A stretch of DNA of 64,000 bases from the NCBI RefSeq assembly GCF_014851805.1, contig NZ_JACVAK010000003.1, positions 271,501 through 335,500 on the forward strand. Direction: 5' to 3'. Below the pieces are notes generated by a model. The model searched no databases. It was not told where the DNA came from and saw only the letters and a program-made list of their open reading frames with translations. The position numbers were made by a program, and so were the translations under genes. Origin of the DNA: Pseudoxanthomonas sp. PXM02. GTDB lineage: Bacteria > Pseudomonadota > Gammaproteobacteria > Xanthomonadales > Xanthomonadaceae. Below are positions 27,631-42,324 of the stretch, piece by piece. The stretch's first letter is position 1, and each line of letters begins with the position of its first letter.

Positions 27631-28890
27631 TCAGCGCGACAGGCGCAGGCGGCTGATCGTGCCGCGACCTGGCGCCGACTGGATCGACAGCGTCCAGCCC
27701 AGGTGCTCGCACAGGCGCGCCAGCAGGTCGAGGCCGATGCCGCCGCCCTCGCGGCCGCCGCCTCGCGCCATCTGCGCGTACAGGCGACTGATTTCTTCCG
27801 GCGTCATGCCGTGGCCCGGATCCCGCACGACCACCGTCGCATCCGCATCCAGGCTCACGTGGATCCCGCCGTTGTCGCTGTTCTCGATGGCATTGCGCAG
27901 CAGGTTGCCGATCGCCGCCTGCACGATGTGCAGCGGCGCGGACACGCTGCACGGCGCAAGGTCGTCGATGACGACGGACAGGTCCTTGCCGTCCATCAGG
28001 TGGCGATGGTCGTCGATGATGTCCGGCAGCAACTCGTGCAGCGGCACGACCTCGTTGCTGCGCGAGAGGCGCGCGGGATCCTTGGCGAGGGTCAGCAACA
28101 GGGCAATCAGCTGTTCCACGTCGCGTGCGGTCCGGTGGATGCGCTGCACCTGCTGACGTGCAGAGCCGGGCAGATCGTCGCGACCCAGCGCCAGTTCGCT
28201 GGCACCCGCGATGATGGCGATGGGCGTGCGGAGTTCGTGGCTGGTCGTATCGATGAAGACGCGCTCGCGTTCGACGAAGGCATCCTGGCGGCGAAGATAG
28301 TCGTTCAGGGCATTGGTGATGACGTGCAGCTCGGAACTGGCGTCGTCCGCCACGGCCACGCGTTGGCCGGCATGGTCGGGGGCCAGCTTTCCGATGTCAC
28401 TGGCCAGGTCCGACAAAGGACGCAGCGCGTCGCGTACACCGCGGGCGACCAGCACGCCGATGATCACCAAGACGACGGCCGCGAGTCCCAGCGATCCGAG
28501 CAGCAATGCGTCCTCGACCGTCTCGATGCCGGTGATGTCGCGCACGACGAAATAGTCCACGTCGCCCTGGCGCTGGACCAGCACGACGTTCTCCCGCCCC
28601 TTGAACCAGAAATCATCGTGGACGCCCGAAGGCAACATCGACAGCTCGGGCGGCGGTGGACGACCTGGCATGCGGTAGATCTGCAGCGTGTCGGTATCCC
28701 GCCATGCGTAGGCCGGATCGTCGGCCTGCCGTTGCACGTGCTCTGCGATCTCGCGCTGGAGCAGCGATTTCCACACCCTGTCCTCGAGAAAGTCATCCGC
28801 GAAGACGAGGAGGATGACGGCCGCCAGCAGCACGGCATAACCGCCGAGCAGGCGCCGGATTTTCCCGTGCAGGCTGCGATGGGCCTTCAT
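27631..28890 (-). CDS. Sensor histidine kinase of a two-component system
   Basis: The 419-residue product has membrane helices at about 14-32 and 129-150 enclosing a periplasmic sensor region of about 95 residues. A HAMP-like linker and a HisKA domain with phospho-acceptor H218 (SHELRTP) follow. A HATPase domain has an N-box (NLLRNAIENS), a DPGHGM G1 box and GGGIGLDLLARL. The short sensor is acidic and proline-rich, loosely resembling PhoQ/PmrB-type sensors. The start overlaps the response regulator stop by four bases. The pair is divergent from the lipid A modification operon, so it probably controls it; the signal is unknown. Confidence 0.9.
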   Translation of the reverse strand: MKAHRSLHGKIRRLLGGYAVLLAAVILLVFADDFLEDRVWKSLLQREIAEHVQRQADDPAYAWRDTDTLQIYRMPGRPPPPELSMLPSGVHDDFWFKGRENVVLVQRQGDVDYFVVRDITGIETVEDALLLGSLGLAAVVLVIIGVLVARGVRDALRPLSDLASDIGKLAPDHAGQRVAVADDASSELHVITNALNDYLRRQDAFVERERVFIDTTSHELRTPIAIIAGASELALGRDDLPGSARQQVQRIHRTARDVEQLIALLLTLAKDPARLSRSNEVVPLHELLPDIIDDHRHLMDGKDLSVVIDDLAPCSVSAPLHIVQAAIGNLLRNAIENSDNGGIHVSLDADATVVVRDPGHGMTPEEISRLYAQMARGGGREGGGIGLDLLARLCEHLGWTLSIQSAPGRGTISRLRLSR

Positions 28891-29579
28891 GCGTCGCGTG
28901 CCTCGTGCGGGACCGCCAGCCGGTAACCGGTACGCGGCAGCGTCTGGATCAGCTTGACCGGAAACGGGCCGTCGACGCTGCGCCGCAATTCATAGATATG
29001 CGAGCGGAGCATGTCGCCGTCGGGCGGATCCTCACCCCACAGTGCGTGCTCCAGCTGCTGCCGGGTGACTGCTGCGGGGCTGGCCTGCATCAGCGTCTCC
29101 AGCAGCCTGCGGCACGCGGGATACAGGTGCAGCGCTTGACCAGCGCGCGTGACCTCCAGGGTGGCAAGGTCGAGCTTCAGGTCGTGCACTTCCAGCACCT
29201 TGCGCCGTTGCCGGCCCTGCGTACGCACCATCAACGCTTCCAGCCGCACTTCCAGTTCCGGCAGCGCGAAGGGCTTGGTCAGGTAGTCGTCGGCGCCGGC
29301 ACGAAAGCCGGCGATCTTGTCGGGCAGCTCGTCGCGCGCGGTCAGCATGATGACCGGCAGGCTGGAGTCGTGCTCCTCGCGCAGTCGACGCAAGACCTCG
29401 GGGCCTTCCAGTCGCGGCAGCATCCAGTCCAGCACCAGGGCGTCGTACGTCTGCGTCGTCGCCAGGTGCAGCCCGGTCACGCCGTCGGGCGCGGCGTCCA
29501 GCGTGTGGCCGCGCGCCTCGAAGTAATCGAACAGGTTCGCCACCAGGTTCCGGTTGTCTTCGATCACCAGCAGCCGCAT
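28887..29579 (-). CDS. OmpR/PhoP-family response regulator
   Basis: The product is 230 residues from the ATG at 29579 (an ATG at 29588 is also possible). The receiver domain has the acidic pocket IEDN, phospho-acceptor D51 (LVLDWMLP), a LTARD threonine and the YLTKPF lysine. The C-terminal winged helix includes TRQQLEHALWG and LRSHIYELRRSVD. It is the first gene of an operon with the histidine kinase. A perfect 16-base palindrome at 29640-29655 lies between it and the divergent glycosyltransferase gene. Confidence 0.92.
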   Translation of the reverse strand: MRLLVIEDNRNLVANLFDYFEARGHTLDAAPDGVTGLHLATTQTYDALVLDWMLPRLEGPEVLRRLREEHDSSLPVIMLTARDELPDKIAGFRAGADDYLTKPFALPELEVRLEALMVRTQGRQRRKVLEVHDLKLDLATLEVTRAGQALHLYPACRRLLETLMQASPAAVTRQQLEHALWGEDPPDGDMLRSHIYELRRSVDGPFPVKLIQTLPRTGYRLAVPHEARDA

Positions 29580-29639
29580 CGGAAGCATCCGCGCCAAATA
29601 GGGAGGACCGGCAGGATCGCAGGCCGGACGTCGAAGCAC

Positions 29640-29655
29640 CGTCGGAATTCCGACG
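29640..29655. promoter_or_regulatory. Perfect 16-base palindrome in the divergent promoter region
   Basis: CGTCGGAATTCCGACG is identical to its reverse complement. It lies midway between the response regulator start (29579) and the ArnT-like gene start (29717). It is a candidate operator. OmpR-type regulators usually bind direct repeats, so another regulator may be responsible. Confidence 0.5.
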
Positions 29656-29716
29656 AATCTCCTACGCCCCATGATCCACCATCGTGCGCCCGCCTGCAGA
29701 CTGGCCGACCCTGCCA

Positions 29717-31423
29717 ATGCTTTCCGCGCGCTCCCGACACGCCTCCCGCTGGCAGACCCCGCTGCTGGTCGCCCTCATGGTGTGGGCCCTGCTGGCAGGG
29801 CTGGGCCTGCGCGAACCGATGCCGGCCGACGAGCCGCGCTTCGTGCTCGCCGCGCAGACGATGGTGGAGACGGGCCAATGGCTGTTCCCCCACCGCGGCA
29901 TCGAGCTCTACGCCGAGAAACCGCCGACGTTCATGTGGCTGCAGGCGACCAGCTATCTGCTGGTGCGCAGCTGGGACGTGGCCTTCCTGCTGCCGTCGCT
30001 GCTGGCGGCGCTGCTGACGCTGTGGCTGTCCGGCGATCTCGCACGTCGCCTGTGGGGACGCCGTGCGGTGCCCTACGCGGTGTTCGGCCTGTTCGTCTGC
30101 CTGCAGTTCGCCCTGCAGGCCAAGCGCGCGCAGATCGACATGGTGCTCGTGGGCATGACCACCCTGTCACTGTGGGCCTTGCTGCGTTATCTGTTGGAGA
30201 CGCCGAGTGCGTGGCTGCTCGCGCTGGGCACGTTCGCCGCCGGGCTGGGCACGGTGACCAAGGGCGTCGGCTTCCTGCCGCTGCTGGTGTTCATCCCGTG
30301 GCTGTGGGTGCGGTGGAAATCGGCACAGGACCTGCCCGCGCACCGCGGCGTGCATGCGCTGGCGGGCGTGGCCGGCTTCCTGTTGGGTGCCGGCGTCTGG
30401 CTGGTACCGATGCTGTCCGTCGCGCTGTCCTCGTCCGATCCCGCCCTGCATACCTACGCGCGCGAGATGCTGTTCAAGCAGACCGGCACGCGTTACGCCA
30501 ATGCGTGGCATCACGTGAAGCCGGCCTGGTATTACCTGCAGACGATGCTGACGCTGTGGCTGCCCGGTGTACTGCTCGCACCATGGCTGCTGCCCGCGTG
30601 GTGGCGACGGCTGCGGCGCGTCGATGCGCGTTATGCGCTGCTGCTCGTGTGGGCGCTGCTGGTGCTGGTGTTCTTCAGCGCCAGCCCGGGCAAGCGCGAG
30701 GTCTACATCTTCCCGATGTTGCCTGCACTCGCGGTGGCAGCATCGCCGCTGCTGGCAGGCCTGCTGCGGCGCCGAGGCGTGCGTGCGACGTTGTGGGCCT
30801 ACATGACGGTGCTGGTGGCGGTCGCCGGCGCGCTCGGACTGTGGCTGCTGACAGCATCGCCCGAGCGCGTGCATGCGCTGGTCGACGGCCGCGGCATGGA
30901 CATGGCCACGGTCGCGCAACTGAGCCGATGGCTGCTCGGCTTCGCGGTCGTCGCGATCGCGGTGATGCTCGCCGCACGGCGGCGGGTGGCGGTCGCGCTG
31001 GTCGCGGTGACGGGGGCGTTGTGGACGGCCTATGGCATGGGCTTCATGCCCGCGATCAGCCCGGACAGTTCTGCCCGGGCGCTGATGCAGCGCGTCGGCG
31101 AACGGATCGGTCCCGACGCCGAGCTGGCGATGCTCGGTTGGCGCGAGCAGCATCTGCTGCAGGCCGACCGGCTGGTGACCGATTTCGGATTCAAGCAACC
31201 CTGGGTGGACCAGTGGCAGCACGCGCATGCGTGGTTGCTGGCGGCGCCGGACAAGCGCTGGCTGTTCCTGCGCAAGGATGCCATCGGACCTTGTCTTGAC
31301 CCCGCCAAGGTCATCGACATCGGCGCGTCCAACCGGCGCGCGTGGATCCTGGCGCGTGGCGATGCCTGGATCGCAGGGTGCGACGTGCCCTCCACCTGGT
31401 CCGCCGACGTCAGCGAAGACTGA
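29717..31423 (+). CDS. ArnT/PMT-type (GT83-like) membrane glycosyltransferase
   Basis: The product is 568 residues from the ATG at 29717; a GTG at 29684 would add 11. Ten or more membrane helices are visible. The first periplasmic loop has the GT-C signature PADEPRFVLAAQTMVETGQW, where Asp-Glu is the expected metal/catalytic site, followed by YAEKPPTFMW. The central loop contains LFKQTGTRY. ArnT-like enzymes move a sugar from undecaprenyl phosphate to lipid A phosphate on the periplasmic face. No arnA, arnB or arnD is in the window, so the sugar is probably not L-Ara4N unless it is made elsewhere. It is first in a five-gene operon with a PAP2 phosphatase and EptA. Confidence 0.87.
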   Translation: MLSARSRHASRWQTPLLVALMVWALLAGLGLREPMPADEPRFVLAAQTMVETGQWLFPHRGIELYAEKPPTFMWLQATSYLLVRSWDVAFLLPSLLAALLTLWLSGDLARRLWGRRAVPYAVFGLFVCLQFALQAKRAQIDMVLVGMTTLSLWALLRYLLETPSAWLLALGTFAAGLGTVTKGVGFLPLLVFIPWLWVRWKSAQDLPAHRGVHALAGVAGFLLGAGVWLVPMLSVALSSSDPALHTYAREMLFKQTGTRYANAWHHVKPAWYYLQTMLTLWLPGVLLAPWLLPAWWRRLRRVDARYALLLVWALLVLVFFSASPGKREVYIFPMLPALAVAASPLLAGLLRRRGVRATLWAYMTVLVAVAGALGLWLLTASPERVHALVDGRGMDMATVAQLSRWLLGFAVVAIAVMLAARRRVAVALVAVTGALWTAYGMGFMPAISPDSSARALMQRVGERIGPDAELAMLGWREQHLLQADRLVTDFGFKQPWVDQWQHAHAWLLAAPDKRWLFLRKDAIGPCLDPAKVIDIGASNRRAWILARGDAWIAGCDVPSTWSADVSED

Positions 31424-31539
31424 ACCTCGAACAACGCCACGCCGGCACCTCCGGCGTTTAACACGGCTCCGACACCTGTCCGACCGTGCTACGACATCGC
31501 GGCAACGAGCATGCGCGCACCCTCACTGGCCCGCGCCGC

Positions 31540-32265
31540 ATGTCCGCACCGTCGCCCTCTTTTTCCGCCGTGCCGGAGCAGCGCCTCTCCGGTCTGCTTC
31601 CTGTCTCGGTGATCCTGCTGGTGGCGGCCTGGATGGCCGCACAGTCGCTGGATCAGCCGCTGGCGTCGTGGCTGTTCCGCTGGCAGGGAGAGGCCTGGTC
31701 GCTGAAGCACAGCGTCGTGCTGGAAACCGTGCTGCATCGGGGTGGCCGTCTGCTCAGCCAGCTGGCCTGGGTCGGGCTGCTGGTGGCCACGCTGACGCAG
31801 TGGCGCACGCGAGCCGCAGACCGGTGGACCCGACCCGCGGCGCGACTGCTGATTGCCGTACTTGCCTCCACCGCCTGCGTGGCAGTGCTGAAAGCGACGA
31901 CGCACATGGACTGTCCGTGGGATCTCGTCGGCTTCGGTGGGCAGCGCCCGTTCGTGCCGCTGCTTGAACACCGTCCGGCAACGCTCGGCATGCCGGCCTG
32001 CTTTCCGGCCGCGCATGCCGCAAGTGGCTATGCATGGGTGGCGCTGTACTTCTTCTTCCTGCAGGCCGCACCGCGTTGGCGCCACCTGGGATTGGCCGCG
32101 GGACTGCTGGCGGGCGCCGTCTTCGGGATGGCGCAACAACTGCGCGGCGCGCATTTCCTGTCGCACGACATTGCCAGCCTGGCGATCTGCTGGACGGTCG
32201 CGTGCATCGTCGACCGCGTCGGCGCGTGGCGTGCCTCCGCGACCGGGGCGGAGGGGCGGGCATGA
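31540..32265 (+). CDS. PAP2-family membrane phosphatase, possible lipid A phosphatase
   Basis: The 241-residue product has about five or six membrane helices and the three PAP2 motifs in order: K-containing motif 1 (LKATTHMDCPWD), motif 2 (FPAAHAASGYAW, with Ala where the usual PSGH has Ser-Gly) and motif 3 (RGAHFLSHDIASL). The family includes LpxE/LpxF lipid A phosphatases and undecaprenyl diphosphate phosphatases. Its position between an ArnT-like transferase and EptA favours a lipid A or polyprenyl phosphate substrate. Its TGA overlaps the next ATG by four bases. The ATG at 31540 is chosen over an in-frame upstream start because it lies just before the hydrophobic region. Confidence 0.85.
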   Translation: MSAPSPSFSAVPEQRLSGLLPVSVILLVAAWMAAQSLDQPLASWLFRWQGEAWSLKHSVVLETVLHRGGRLLSQLAWVGLLVATLTQWRTRAADRWTRPAARLLIAVLASTACVAVLKATTHMDCPWDLVGFGGQRPFVPLLEHRPATLGMPACFPAAHAASGYAWVALYFFFLQAAPRWRHLGLAAGLLAGAVFGMAQQLRGAHFLSHDIASLAICWTVACIVDRVGAWRASATGAEGRA

Positions 32266-33929
32266 ACGCTTCAGTCCTCGGTCGCGCGGCGACGCCATCA
32301 CGCTGGCAGCGCATCCGCGCTCTGCTGGGCGTACGTCCCTTGATCTCTTCCGAGGCGTTGATCCTCGTCGCCTGCCTGTACTTCAGCGTGTTCGCGAATG
32401 CGGCCTTCTGGCGGGCCGCCACACCGCAACCCTGGTCGCAGTGGCGATGGACGCTCTCGCTGTTCCTGCTGGTGACCTGCGTGCACGGCGTATGGCTGTC
32501 GCTGCTGGTGTGGCGGCGCACGGCACGCGTGGTGCTGTCCGCGCTGGTGGTGGTGGCCGCGCTCGCGGGTCACTACATGGCCAGCTACGGCATCTACATC
32601 GACGCCGACATGGTCCGCAACGTGCTGCATACCGACTGGCGCGAGGCCAGCGACCTGGCCGGCATCGACATCCTGGTGCCGCTGCTCGCCGCCGCGCCGG
32701 CCCTGCTGCTGATCTGGCGCGTGCGCCTGAAGGAACGAAGCTGGTCTCGGACGTTCGGCGTGAGGCTGGTCTTCCTTGCCGGCATGGTGGCGACGGGCGT
32801 GGTCGGTGTCCTGCCGTCCACGCAGCAGCTGACCGCGTTCCTGCGCAACCAGCGCGAAGTGCGCTACCTGGTGACGCCTGCCAACGTGCTGGTCTCGCTG
32901 GCCAAGGTGGTCAGCGAGGATCCGCCCGGCCGCAAGCGCGTTCTGCAGCCGATCGGCGAAGACGCCGTGCAGTCGCCCGCGGCCACCATGCGCCGGCCGC
33001 GCCTGCTGGTGCTGGTGGTCGGCGAGACCGCCCGCGCCGCGAGCTGGGGCCTCAACGGCTATGCGCGCCAGACGACGCCGGAACTCGCCAGGCGCAACGT
33101 GCTCAACTTCCCGCACGTCACCGCCTGCGGCAGCAGCACCGAAGTCTCGCTGCCGTGCATGTTCTCGCCGCTGGGCAGGGAGCACTACGACGAAGCGGAG
33201 ATCCGCAGCCACCAGTCGCTGCTGCACGTGCTGCAGCGGGCGGGCGTGCAGACCTTGTGGCGCGACAACCAGTCGGGCTGCAAGGGTGTCTGCGATGGCC
33301 TGGCCGTCGAGGATCTGCATGCGCGCACCGATGCGGATCTCTGCAACGGCAAGCGCTGCTACGACGAGATCCTGCTGTCCGGGCTGGAAGACACCGTCCG
33401 TCGCCATCACGGCGACCAGGTCGTGGTGCTGCACATGCTGGGCAACCACGGACCGACTTACTCCGAGCGCTACCCGTCCTCCTTCAAGGCCTACGAGCCG
33501 GTCTGCGAGACCTCCGACCTTGGGCGCTGCTCACGCGCGCAGATCACCAACGCTTACGACAACGCGCTGCGCTACACCGACCACGTAGTGGCCTCCGCCA
33601 TCGACCGGCTGGCTGCCCTGGACGGCTACGACACTGCCCTGCTGTACGTGTCCGACCACGGTGAATCGCTGGGCGAAAAGGGGCTGTACCTGCACGGGAT
33701 GCCGTACTCCATCGCCCCTCGCGAACAGCTGGAAGTCCCGATGGTCGCGTGGTTCTCCGACGGCTGGCGCCGATCCACGCACCTGGACGAGCGTTGCCTG
33801 CAGCAGCAGGCACGCGGCGAACGTACCCACGACGACCTGTTCCACACCGTACTCGGCCTTACCGACGTGAAGACAACGCTGTACCGACCGGACTACGACA
33901 TTTTCCTGACCTGCAGGAGCGCACGCTGA
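32262..33929 (+). CDS. eptA: EptA-type lipid A phosphoethanolamine transferase
   Basis: The 555-residue product has five N-terminal membrane helices (about residues 30-185) and a periplasmic sulfatase-fold domain. The catalytic elements are visible: GETAR with E255, nucleophile T293 in SSTEVSLPCMFSPL, HMLGNHGPTY, and SDHGESLGEKGLYLHGMP. Cysteines at the spacings seen in EptA/MCR are present (TACGS, LPCM, GCKGVC, LCNGKRC, VCETSDLGRC). It would add phosphoethanolamine from phosphatidylethanolamine to lipid A, lowering negative charge and polymyxin binding. It overlaps both neighbours in the operon (ATGA upstream, TGATG downstream). Confidence 0.95.
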   Translation: MNASVLGRAATPSRWQRIRALLGVRPLISSEALILVACLYFSVFANAAFWRAATPQPWSQWRWTLSLFLLVTCVHGVWLSLLVWRRTARVVLSALVVVAALAGHYMASYGIYIDADMVRNVLHTDWREASDLAGIDILVPLLAAAPALLLIWRVRLKERSWSRTFGVRLVFLAGMVATGVVGVLPSTQQLTAFLRNQREVRYLVTPANVLVSLAKVVSEDPPGRKRVLQPIGEDAVQSPAATMRRPRLLVLVVGETARAASWGLNGYARQTTPELARRNVLNFPHVTACGSSTEVSLPCMFSPLGREHYDEAEIRSHQSLLHVLQRAGVQTLWRDNQSGCKGVCDGLAVEDLHARTDADLCNGKRCYDEILLSGLEDTVRRHHGDQVVVLHMLGNHGPTYSERYPSSFKAYEPVCETSDLGRCSRAQITNAYDNALRYTDHVVASAIDRLAALDGYDTALLYVSDHGESLGEKGLYLHGMPYSIAPREQLEVPMVAWFSDGWRRSTHLDERCLQQQARGERTHDDLFHTVLGLTDVKTTLYRPDYDIFLTCRSAR

Positions 33930-34687
33930 TGTTGAACACGCCAACCCCTTCCGTCATGAGCCTGTCCGTCGTCATTCCGGCCTTCAACGAACGCGGCAAC
34001 ATCGGTCCGCTGGTGCATGAGGTCGTGCGCCACCTGCGCGGCCGCGTGGCGTTCGACGTGATCTGCGTGGACGACCATTCCGACGATGACACGCGTGACG
34101 TACTCGCGGCATTGAAGGCCGAAGTCCCCGAGCTGCGGGTGCTGGTGCACCAGCAGCGCAGTGGCCAGAGCGCGGCTGTCCGTACCGGCGCCAAGCAGGC
34201 GCTGTCGCCATGGATCGCGACCCTCGACGGCGATGGACAGAACGATCCCGCCGATATCCTGAAGCTGCTGGCGGCACGCGATGCCGGCGATCCGCAGACC
34301 AAGCTGTTCGCCGGCTGGCGTGTCGAGCGCAAGGACACGGCGAGCAAGCGCTGGGCGTCGCGCTGGGCCAACCGCATCCGCCAGCGCCTGCTGCACGACG
34401 ACACGCCGGATACCGGTTGCGGCATCAAGCTGTTCGAGCGCGCCGCGTTCCTCGAACTGCCCTACTTCGACCACATGCACCGCTACCTGCCTGCGCTGAT
34501 GCAGCGTGCAGGCTGGAAGACCGTCAGCGTGCCCGTCTCGCATCGGCCGCGCGGCACCGGACAGTCCAAGTACACCAATCTCGGCCGAGCGCTGGTCGGC
34601 ATCCGCGATCTGATGGGTGTGTCCTGGCTGATCCAGCGCAGCCACGTGACGCCCATCAGTGAGCTCAACGTCGGCCGCAAGCCATGA
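33929..34687 (+). CDS. GT2 glycosyltransferase, dolichol-phosphate mannose synthase-like
   Basis: The 252-residue product has a GT-A fold: LSVVIPAFNERGNIGPLV, DDHSDDDT, the LDGDGQNDP metal-binding motif and a FAGWRVERKD region. The C-terminal HRPRGTGQSKY box is conserved in DPM1/ArnC-like enzymes that make polyprenyl-phosphate sugars at the cytoplasmic face. Unlike ArnC it lacks C-terminal membrane helices. It would supply the undecaprenyl-phosphate sugar donor used by the ArnT-like enzyme of the same operon. Its ATG overlaps the EptA stop by one base, and its stop overlaps the next start by four. The sugar is unknown. Confidence 0.9.
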   Translation: MLNTPTPSVMSLSVVIPAFNERGNIGPLVHEVVRHLRGRVAFDVICVDDHSDDDTRDVLAALKAEVPELRVLVHQQRSGQSAAVRTGAKQALSPWIATLDGDGQNDPADILKLLAARDAGDPQTKLFAGWRVERKDTASKRWASRWANRIRQRLLHDDTPDTGCGIKLFERAAFLELPYFDHMHRYLPALMQRAGWKTVSVPVSHRPRGTGQSKYTNLGRALVGIRDLMGVSWLIQRSHVTPISELNVGRKP

Positions 34688-35040
34688 GTGCGATGGACCA
34701 GGAAATCCTGTGGCTGGGCTGGACCGGCCTGCACATGACGCCGTGGAAGCTCATCGGCCTGACCGGCGCGGCGCTGTTCGGGGCACGCTGGCTGGTGCAG
34801 TTCGTCGCGTCGCGTCGCGCGCGACGGCCGGTGATCCCGCGCCTGTTCTGGTACATGAGCCTGGCGGGCAGCCTGATGGCGTTGAGCTACTTCCTGTTCT
34901 CGTCGAAGCAGGACGCGGTGGGCGTGCTGCAGAACCTGCTGCCCGCCTTCACTGCGGCGTACAGCCTGTATCTCGACGTGCGTCATGGCCGCGAACAGCG
35001 GCTCGCGTCGGGCGATGTGCCGGGACACCCGGCGCGCTGA
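34684..35040 (+). CDS. LAB_N-domain small membrane protein
   Basis: The 118-residue product has three hydrophobic helices and matches the N-terminal domain of lipid-A-disaccharide synthase fusions (LAB_N, for example LFGARWLVQFVASRRAR and FWYMSLAGSLMALSYFLF). The domain is often a free-standing small protein beside DPM-like glycosyltransferases. It is distantly related to PQ-loop/SWEET-type carriers, so a role in flipping or positioning a lipid-linked sugar is possible but unproven. It is the last gene of the operon, and its stop abuts the convergent sugar dehydrogenase stop. Confidence 0.85.
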   Translation: MSAMDQEILWLGWTGLHMTPWKLIGLTGAALFGARWLVQFVASRRARRPVIPRLFWYMSLAGSLMALSYFLFSSKQDAVGVLQNLLPAFTAAYSLYLDVRHGREQRLASGDVPGHPAR

Positions 35041-42308: not shown

Positions 42309-42324
42309 TTGACAACGTTGTCAA
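42309..42324. promoter_or_regulatory. LacI-type operator, kinase side
   Basis: TTGACAACGTTGTCAA is a perfect 16-base palindrome with the central CG usual for LacI-family sites. It begins with a consensus -35 hexamer on the plus strand, so a bound repressor would block the promoter of the glucokinase/receptor arm. Confidence 0.8.

What the first reader, a model, noticed from the sequence alone, without database searches (positions are those of the whole stretch)
28887..35040. Candidate regulated lipid A remodelling locus with an unusual gene set
Seen: a two-component system divergent from an overlapping operon of ArnT-like GT83, PAP2 phosphatase, EptA, DPM-like GT2 and LAB_N protein. Known: EptA and ArnT mask lipid A phosphates, PAP2 LpxE/LpxF enzymes remove them, and FlmF/FlmK of Francisella is a similar GT2 plus ArnT-like pair. 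Inferred: the operon swaps lipid A phosphates for an as yet unnamed sugar and phosphoethanolamine under one regulator, giving cationic peptide resistance. arnA, arnB and arnD are missing, so the sugar is open.
Basis: partly seen in the sequence, partly recalled or inferred. Interest (0 to 1): 0.7.

Follow-up and report, generated by a model that had tools for sequence, protein, structure and literature searches.

The report
Metal-sensing lipid A remodelling operon
A bacterium related to Xanthomonas carries a known kind of switch-controlled gene set for reshaping its outer-membrane lipid, and comparison with relatives suggests that the unnamed sugar it attaches is the acidic sugar galacturonic acid rather than a positively charged one.

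Summary
The genes are real. Divergent from a two-component pair lie GT83 (ArnT-like), PAP2, EptA, GT2 and LAB_N, in a Pseudoxanthomonas genome. The core is in print: Stewart & Ronald 2021 (PMC8306577) described raxRH-arnT-lpxE-eptA in Xanthomonas as a predicted lipid A remodelling locus, noted GT2/LAB_N homologues linked to arnT in some species, and left the sugar open. Added here: (1) In 149 sampled family genomes all 138 with GT83 have GT2; 2 have GT2 alone, 9 neither. (2) There are two GT83 clades; GT2 lies near the raxRH-type GT83 in 17 of 19 genomes with only that type, in 1 of 20 with both. (3) A UDP-glucuronate 4-epimerase-type gene adjoins GT2 in at least 74 of 140 genomes, and one relative has raxRH-GT83-epimerase-GT2-LAB_N, so the donor sugar is probably galacturonic acid, which is acidic. 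In the window's own genus the epimerase is unlinked. (4) A tandem GTCGGAA-N4-GTCGGAA box recurs in the two gaps before GT83 and PAP2. No arnA, arnB or arnD was found. Regulated remodelling is supported, a cationic sugar is not. All functions are inferred from sequence.

The parts
27631..28890 (-). RaxH/ColS-type sensor histidine kinase, 419 aa; two predicted TM helices, ExxE motifs at residues 47 (EIAE) and 123 (ETVE)
   Evidence: Pfam HisKA and HATPase_c; motifs and hydropathy; sensors of 25 loci compared
28887..29579 (-). RaxR/ColR-type OmpR-family response regulator; its stop overlaps the kinase start
   Evidence: Response_reg and Trans_reg_C; 69-91% identical copies beside rax-type GT83 in related genomes
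29630..29647 (+). candidate RaxR box 1 (12 of 14 matches to GTCGGAA-N4-GTCGGAA)
29648..29665 (-). candidate RaxR box 2, head to head with box 1 (12 of 14)
29640..29655 (.). 16-bp perfect palindrome formed where the two boxes meet
29717..31423 (+). GT83 ArnT-like polyprenyl-phosphate-sugar glycosyltransferase, 568 aa, rax clade
   Evidence: only solved relative found is ArnT 5ezm; the six motifs that hold the key ArnT residues are conserved; tree
31467..31484 (-). candidate RaxR box 3, upstream of PAP2 (12 of 14)
31540..32265 (+). PAP2 phosphatase, LpxE-like (predicted lipid A phosphatase); PAAH in place of the usual PAGH
   Evidence: PF01569 above cut-off; NCBIfam lipid A phosphatase model matched far below its cut-off; motif comparison
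32262..33929 (+). EptA-family lipid A phosphoethanolamine transferase
   Evidence: NF028537 560 bits over cut-off 500; Sulfatase and EptA_B_N
33929..34687 (+). short ArnC-like GT2; proposed polyprenyl-phosphate galacturonate synthase
   Evidence: ArnC structures are the best solved relatives, over residues 9-218; co-occurrence and linkage
34684..35040 (+). LAB_N protein, three long helices in the model; proposed membrane partner or flippase for the lipid-linked sugar
   Evidence: PF07578; only match of that family in the genome; model of mean pLDDT 87.6

Best explanation
The locus is the Pseudoxanthomonas version of the raxRH (ColRS-type) lipid A/LPS remodelling locus, with its own sugar-donor synthase built in. 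Proposed mechanism: RaxH senses excess metal through its ExxE motifs, and RaxR binds tandem GTCGGAA boxes in front of raxR, GT83 and PAP2. GT2, with LAB_N as membrane partner or flippase, makes polyprenyl-phosphate galacturonic acid from UDP-GalA. GT83 transfers GalA in the periplasm to a phosphate or vacated position of lipid A or the inner core. PAP2 removes a lipid A phosphate and EptA adds phosphoethanolamine. Shown by computation: gene content, residues, co-occurrence, linkage and the recurrent box. Inferred: the sugar, the acceptor, LAB_N's role, RaxR binding, the signal and the phenotype.
For: Same locus in print. ArnT motifs DEPRF, YAEKPP, QIDM, TKG, RYAN, VYIFP present. 138 of 138 GT83 genomes (E<=1e-20) have GT2 (E<=1e-45); 9 of 11 without GT83 also lack GT2. 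GT2 within 12 kb of rax-type GT83 in 17 of 19 rax-only genomes and 1 of 20 with both GT83 types (tree). Epimerase gene within 600 bp of GT2 in at least 74 of 140 GT2 genomes, and beside GT83 or GT2 at the rax-type locus in L169, L153, L157, L159, L167. All 9 epimerase copies read have Ser-Ser-Ser, Tyr, Thr and Arg where UDP-GlcA 4-epimerase has Thr126-Ser127-Ser128, Tyr149, Thr178 and Arg185. Reviews report a lipid-carrier-linked galacturonide and GalA linked through phosphate to Kdo and mannose in X. campestris, and suggest an ArnT-like transfer (passages). Box: 4.5 and 2.2 sites per kb in the two gap regions against 0.019 elsewhere in the same 25 sequences.
Against: Stewart & Ronald knew of no sugar on Xanthomonas lipid A phosphates; GalA is reported on the core. 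The epimerase match (E<=1e-75) is not near GT2 in any of the 7 sampled genomes of the window's genus; in the window's genome the only such copy lies in another cluster beside a TviB-like dehydrogenase and a tyrosine autokinase. The epimerase is in 143 of 149 genomes, including 6 of the 9 that lack GT83 and GT2, so its presence alone says nothing. Its top solved match, 5u4q, is deposited as dTDP-glucose 4,6-dehydratase. Two genomes have GT2 without a GT83 match. Genome counts are not phylogenetically independent. The box is not enriched genome-wide (23 hits against 31 for the reversed pattern), and 5 of 25 sequences have no site of 12 or more before raxR. LAB_N fold matches are not significant. 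PAP2 has Ala where Gly is usual.
Confidence: 0.62

Rival explanations
1. One reading: the operon masks lipid A with an unnamed, probably cationic (aminated) sugar plus phosphoethanolamine for cationic peptide resistance, in the way of Francisella FlmF/FlmK.
For: EptA passes the curated lipid A phosphoethanolamine transferase cut-off; GT2 plus ArnT-like GT83 resembles the FlmF/FlmK pair (FlmF1/FlmF2; FlmK recalled); a galacturonamide is reported on the core of one Xanthomonas pathovar.
Against: The gene that recurs beside GT2 and GT83 is of the UDP-glucuronate 4-epimerase type. I noticed no aminotransferase or sugar deacetylase beside GT2, but I did not annotate every gene in these clusters.
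Confidence: 0.15
2. Ordinary Ara4N transfer from arn genes elsewhere in the genome.
For: GT83 and GT2 are nearest to ArnT and ArnC among curated models and solved structures.
Against: No arnA, arnB or arnD over cut-off in this genome (12 contigs, estimated 100% complete); the best ArnA hit is fmt; ArnD gave no match at all.
Confidence: 0.02
3. The sugar is GalA, but it is put on phosphates of Kdo or mannose in the inner core rather than on the lipid A disaccharide, by rax-type as by solo-type GT83.
For: Galacturonyl phosphate on Kdo and mannose is the reported Xanthomonas modification; ArnT-type enzymes glycosylate phosphates.
Against: The window's rax-type GT83 shares its operon with PAP2 and EptA, and box 3 precedes PAP2. 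The 20 fetched loci of the other GT83 type have no PAP2 or EptA match and one stray box site, 4 kb away from GT83 in L129.
Confidence: 0.25
4. GT2 and LAB_N serve an unrelated pathway and are in the operon by chance.
For: In most of the family they lie elsewhere, often after a ParB-like gene; two genomes keep GT2 without GT83.
Against: No sampled genome has GT83 without GT2; the 9 genomes lacking both come from five genera, four of which also hold genomes with both; linkage recurs in nine genera with different gene orders.
Confidence: 0.04

Closest known systems
raxRH-arnT-lpxE-eptA cluster of Xanthomonas (Stewart & Ronald 2021, PMC8306577)
   Same: Same regulator type with two ExxE motifs, same divergent arrangement, same three enzymes; GT2/LAB_N homologues linked to arnT in some species are mentioned there
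   Different: In the window GT2 and LAB_N end the operon; in X. oryzae they are unlinked and beside a sugar-nucleotide epimerase
Pseudomonas ColRS regulon
   Same: Orthologous regulator according to that paper; by my reading, without a statistic, the box keeps the 11-bp-spaced AC/SAC frame of the P. putida ColR consensus (T/C)(T/C)NA(C/G)NN(T/C)TTTTT(C/G)AC (PMC2689224, passages)
   Different: No T-track; eptA and arnT are not beside colRS in Pseudomonas
Rhizobium RgtE/RgtD with LpxE/LpxF (lipid A galacturonate pathway)
   Same: Lipid-phosphate GalA synthase plus GalA transferase plus phosphatase logic (PMC7663294, passages)
   Different: No sequence comparison with RgtE or RgtD was made here; whether those species pair it with EptA or a RaxRH-type regulator was not checked
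ArnC/ArnT (Ara4N pathway)
   Same: Best solved relatives of GT2 and GT83
   Different: No Ara4N genes found in the genome; GT2 is 252 aa against 322-363 for the ArnC chains and aligns only to their first 215-251 residues
Francisella FlmF/FlmK
   Same: GT2 plus ArnT-like pair (FlmF1/FlmF2 named in PMC8306577; FlmK recalled)
   Different: FlmF2 and FlmF1 are specific for galactosamine and glucose; here the neighbours point to a uronic acid

Membership tests
RaxRH (ColRS-type) lipid A remodelling locus | Divergent OmpR-type regulator and sensor next to arnT, lpxE, eptA | tested here: met
   definition from PMC8306577
RaxRH (ColRS-type) lipid A remodelling locus | ExxE motif just after TM1 and just before TM2 of the sensor | tested here: met
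   EIAE at 47, ETVE at 123; predicted TM 14-32 and 130-148
ArnT-type GT83 | Glu-Lys, Arg and Tyr phosphate ligands and the Asp/Arg, Asp/Lys pairs of Cupriavidus ArnT | tested here: met
   alignment with 5ezm, motif positions; residue list from PMC8306577
Ara4N ArnT (equivalog NF009784) | Score over curated cut-off and an arn donor pathway | tested here: not met
   77.6 bits against 567; no arnA/B/D over cut-off
EptA lipid A phosphoethanolamine transferase | NF028537 over cut-off | tested here: met
   560 against 500
LpxE lipid A phosphatase | Curated PAP2 lipid A phosphatase model over cut-off | tested here: not met
   NF028538 80.9 against 275; PF01569 is met (45.3 against 27.2), so PAP2 superfamily only
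RgtE polyprenyl-phosphate GalA synthase | Use of UDP-GalA | not testable with these tools
   inferred from epimerase neighbourhoods
RgtE polyprenyl-phosphate GalA synthase | Sequence kinship with Rhizobium RgtE | not tested
   no RgtE sequence was fetched
UDP-glucuronate 4-epimerase (neighbour gene in relatives) | Thr126/Ser127/Ser128, Tyr149, Thr178, Arg185 positions; Ser128 not Glu as in decarboxylases | tested here: met
   9 of 9 copies read, with Ser at the Thr126 position (PMC7984243 and PMC12338863 passages)
MtN3-like/SemiSWEET fold for LAB_N | Significant structural match | tested here: inconclusive

The most novel reading that the evidence does not exclude
Across Lysobacteraceae one lipid-linked galacturonate synthase (GT2 with LAB_N, often beside a UDP-glucuronate 4-epimerase) supplies two ArnT-like transferases: a solo one without the RaxR box that makes the galacturonyl phosphates known from the LPS core, and a RaxR-controlled one acting on lipid A. 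When the solo client is absent, the donor genes tend to sit with the rax-type transferase, and in this window they have joined the RaxR operon.
Probability: 0.45. Interest if true: 0.65.

Novelty: new variant of a known kind. Interest (0 to 1): 0.5.

Why it matters
Stewart & Ronald left open which enzyme makes the donor and which sugar the Xanthomonas ArnT transfers; separately, a review mentions a lipid-linked galacturonide seen in X. campestris in 1990 and names no transferase genes for it in the passages I saw. The genomic pattern here joins the two questions and gives one testable answer. If it is right, RaxRH/ColRS-type signalling would control an acidic rather than a cationic LPS modification, and annotations that infer Ara4N-based colistin resistance from arnT in these genera would need revising.

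Tried and rejected
Ara4N donor: arnA (best hit is fmt), arnB and arnD were searched in the genome and not found over cut-off. LAB_N as SemiSWEET-like transporter: fold and profile searches inconclusive. Epimerase presence as a co-loss test: uninformative, since the family is nearly universal (143 of 149). A genome-wide RaxR regulon: 23 hits with up to 2 mismatches against 31 for the reversed control, so none beyond this locus is claimed. Box at the other GT83 type: one stray site, in L129, among the 20 loci L120-L139, one of which (L127) is GT2-linked.

Limits of the counts. The box was first seen by eye in raxR-GT83 gaps, so the count there is not independent; the second region (1750-2100 bp from raxR) was set after one search had shown sites there; overlapping sites are counted separately. 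Epimerase-GT2 adjacency is a lower bound: I entered the rows with at least 63% identity plus two rows of 56-57% already known to be adjacent; the lists were cut at the end. GT83 type was assigned by identity (51% or more = rax), checked by tree for 56 proteins only. The hydropathy test finds no TM helix in GT2, but none in LAB_N either and few in PAP2, so it is weak. ParA, ParB and RsmG beside GT2 were named by my reading of sequences, not by a scan. 42 of the 45 LAB_N orthologues were aligned with the window's.
Full report
WHAT IS THERE. The window lies in contig C6 of an assembly of 4.34 Mb in 12 contigs, estimated 100% complete. Open reading frames and family scans confirm sensor kinase, response regulator, GT83, PAP2, EptA, GT2 and LAB_N. 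PAP2-EptA-GT2-LAB_N overlap by 4, 1 and 4 bases; GT83 and PAP2 are separated by 116 bases.

WHAT IS ALREADY KNOWN. Stewart & Ronald 2021 (PMC8306577; abstract, sections 3.2, 3.4, 3.5, 3.6 and passages seen) describe raxRH-arnT-lpxE-eptA in Xanthomonas as a predicted lipid A remodelling locus and RaxRH as orthologue of the metal-sensing ColRS. They state that the donor-making enzyme is not clear and leave the ArnT function unspecified, name an ArnC-like GT2 and a LAB_N protein beside a sugar-nucleotide epimerase as candidates, and note that homologues are linked to arnT in other species. The window therefore holds a member of a described locus. Its sensor has both ExxE motifs (residues 47 and 123). 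Of the 25 related sensors read, 19 keep the ExxE before TM2; in the other 6 the first Glu is replaced (Gln, His or Ala), in line with the paper's remark.

GT2 BELONGS WITH GT83. In 149 genomes drawn from the family (at least 90% complete), GT83 (E<=1e-20) is in 138 and GT2 (E<=1e-45) in 140; 138 have both, none GT83 alone, 2 GT2 alone (G052, G108), 9 neither, from five genera (Fisher p 7e-13, phylogeny ignored). A tree of 56 GT83 proteins splits with 100/99 support into two sides: 35 rows with all 26 raxRH-linked ones (8 GT2-linked, 1 solo besides), and 21 rows with 19 solo and 2 GT2-linked ones. Of the 30 rax-type loci fetched (L140-L171 without L166 and L170), 22 have raxR and raxH beside GT83. 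In genomes with only the rax type, GT2 lies within 12 kb in 17 of 19 (not in G046 and G090); in genomes with both types, in 1 of 20, and that one (G050) has two GT2 copies (p 6e-8; by genus, a table entered by hand with the mixed genus g28 counted as linked, 9 of 10 against 1 of 7, p 0.004). In the named loci GT2 mostly follows a ParB-like gene, often with an epimerase between.

THE SUGAR. The gene next to GT2 in at least 74 of 140 GT2 genomes is an SDR epimerase. Its top solved match, 5u4q, is deposited as a dTDP-glucose 4,6-dehydratase; next come MoeE5 and 6zl6 for the GT2-linked copy, and 6zl6 for the window genome's copy. PMC7984243 treats MoeE5 as a UDP-GlcA epimerase template (passages); [quoted passage not shown] All 9 copies I read keep the residues that hold the carboxylate, with serine at the Thr126 position and no Glu at Ser128 (PMC7984243 and PMC12338863 passages). 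In a planctomycete bin, L079, an epimerase with the same residues lies beside GT2 and a protein that clusters with GT83 by linkage, though it gave no direct match to the window's GT83 at 1e-8. Reviews report GalA linked through phosphate to Kdo and mannose of Xanthomonas LPS, a lipid-carrier-linked galacturonide in X. campestris, and the guess that transfer resembles Ara4N addition (PMC4878081 and PMC8042644, passages). Together these make polyprenyl-phosphate galacturonic acid the likeliest donor. Against this: in the 7 sampled genomes of the window's genus the epimerase is not near GT2; in the window's genome the copy (58% identical) lies at C5:926486-927484 near a TviB-like dehydrogenase and a tyrosine autokinase; epimerases of this type are in 143 of 149 genomes; and Stewart & Ronald knew of no sugar on Xanthomonas lipid A phosphates. 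Ara4N is excluded for practical purposes.

REGULATION. A tandem box GTCGGAA-N4-GTCGGAA was seen by eye in the raxR-GT83 gaps. Sites with 12 or more of 14 matches in 25 sequences: 29 in the 260 bp before raxR (20 of 25 have one), 19 in the region 1750-2100 bp from raxR, which holds the gap after GT83 in most gene orders (14 of 25; region set), 8 in the remaining 431 kb; 60 shuffled heptamers gave means of 0.15 (maximum 4) and 0.25 (maximum 10). In the window: 29630-29647, 29648-29665 and 31467-31484. In the whole genome there are 23 sites with up to 2 mismatches against 31 for the reversed pattern, and 3 of the 23 are in this locus. By my reading the box keeps the spacing and the AC/SAC frame of the ColR consensus of P. 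putida (PMC2689224, passages) but not its T-track. Among the 20 loci of the other GT83 type there was one stray site (L129). This supports direct control by RaxR; binding is not shown.

HOW IT PROBABLY WORKS. Excess metal, sensed at ExxE (shown for ColS of P. putida, PMC4074579, passages), activates RaxR. GT2 matches only the N-terminal part of ArnC and shows no TM helix in a crude hydropathy test, which however also finds none in LAB_N; LAB_N is modelled as three long helices and may anchor GT2 or flip its product. Pfam places LAB_N in the MtN3-like clan with SWEET transporters (PMC4499210, passage); my structure searches neither confirm nor exclude this. GT83 then adds the sugar, PAP2 removes a phosphate, EptA adds phosphoethanolamine. 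Order, acceptor and effect are inferred.

VERDICT. Observation confirmed. Interpretation partly supported: regulated remodelling yes, cationic sugar unlikely. The locus type is known; the donor logic, the galacturonate prediction for this locus and the RaxR box did not show up in my nine paper searches (listings, with passages or sections of the papers cited), which cover open-access papers only.

Noticed in passing
31540-32265 (PAP2 residues 155-159): The PAP2 motif reads FPAAH in the window and its nearest relative L140, but FPAGH in the other 15 copies in which the motif was read (two of them, L165 and L045, from one genome; 3 more not read). The phosphatase may be altered in this lineage.
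   Followed up: partly
L158 (G050:C17:11000-30000): One genome with both GT83 types has two GT2 copies, one 10 kb from the rax-type GT83 and beside a more distant two-component pair.
   Followed up: no
L170 (G000:C5:915000-934000): A polysaccharide-like cluster with an NDP-sugar dehydrogenase just under the TviB cut-off, GalE, a tyrosine autokinase match and the genome's only close UDP-GlcA 4-epimerase-type gene.
   Followed up: partly
PDB entry 5u4q: Deposited as dTDP-glucose 4,6-dehydratase but matches the window genome's epimerase at E 8e-142 and carries the residues of UDP-GlcA 4-epimerases; possibly misnamed.
   Followed up: no
PMC13203713 (passages): A Stenotrophomonas pavanii paper reports an arnBCADTEF operon, but the part of its table shown lists arnB, arnC, arnE and two arnT and no arnA or arnD; the two arnT may be the two GT83 types.
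   Followed up: no
42309-42324: A 16-bp perfect palindrome TTGACAACGTTGTCAA elsewhere in the window.
   Followed up: no
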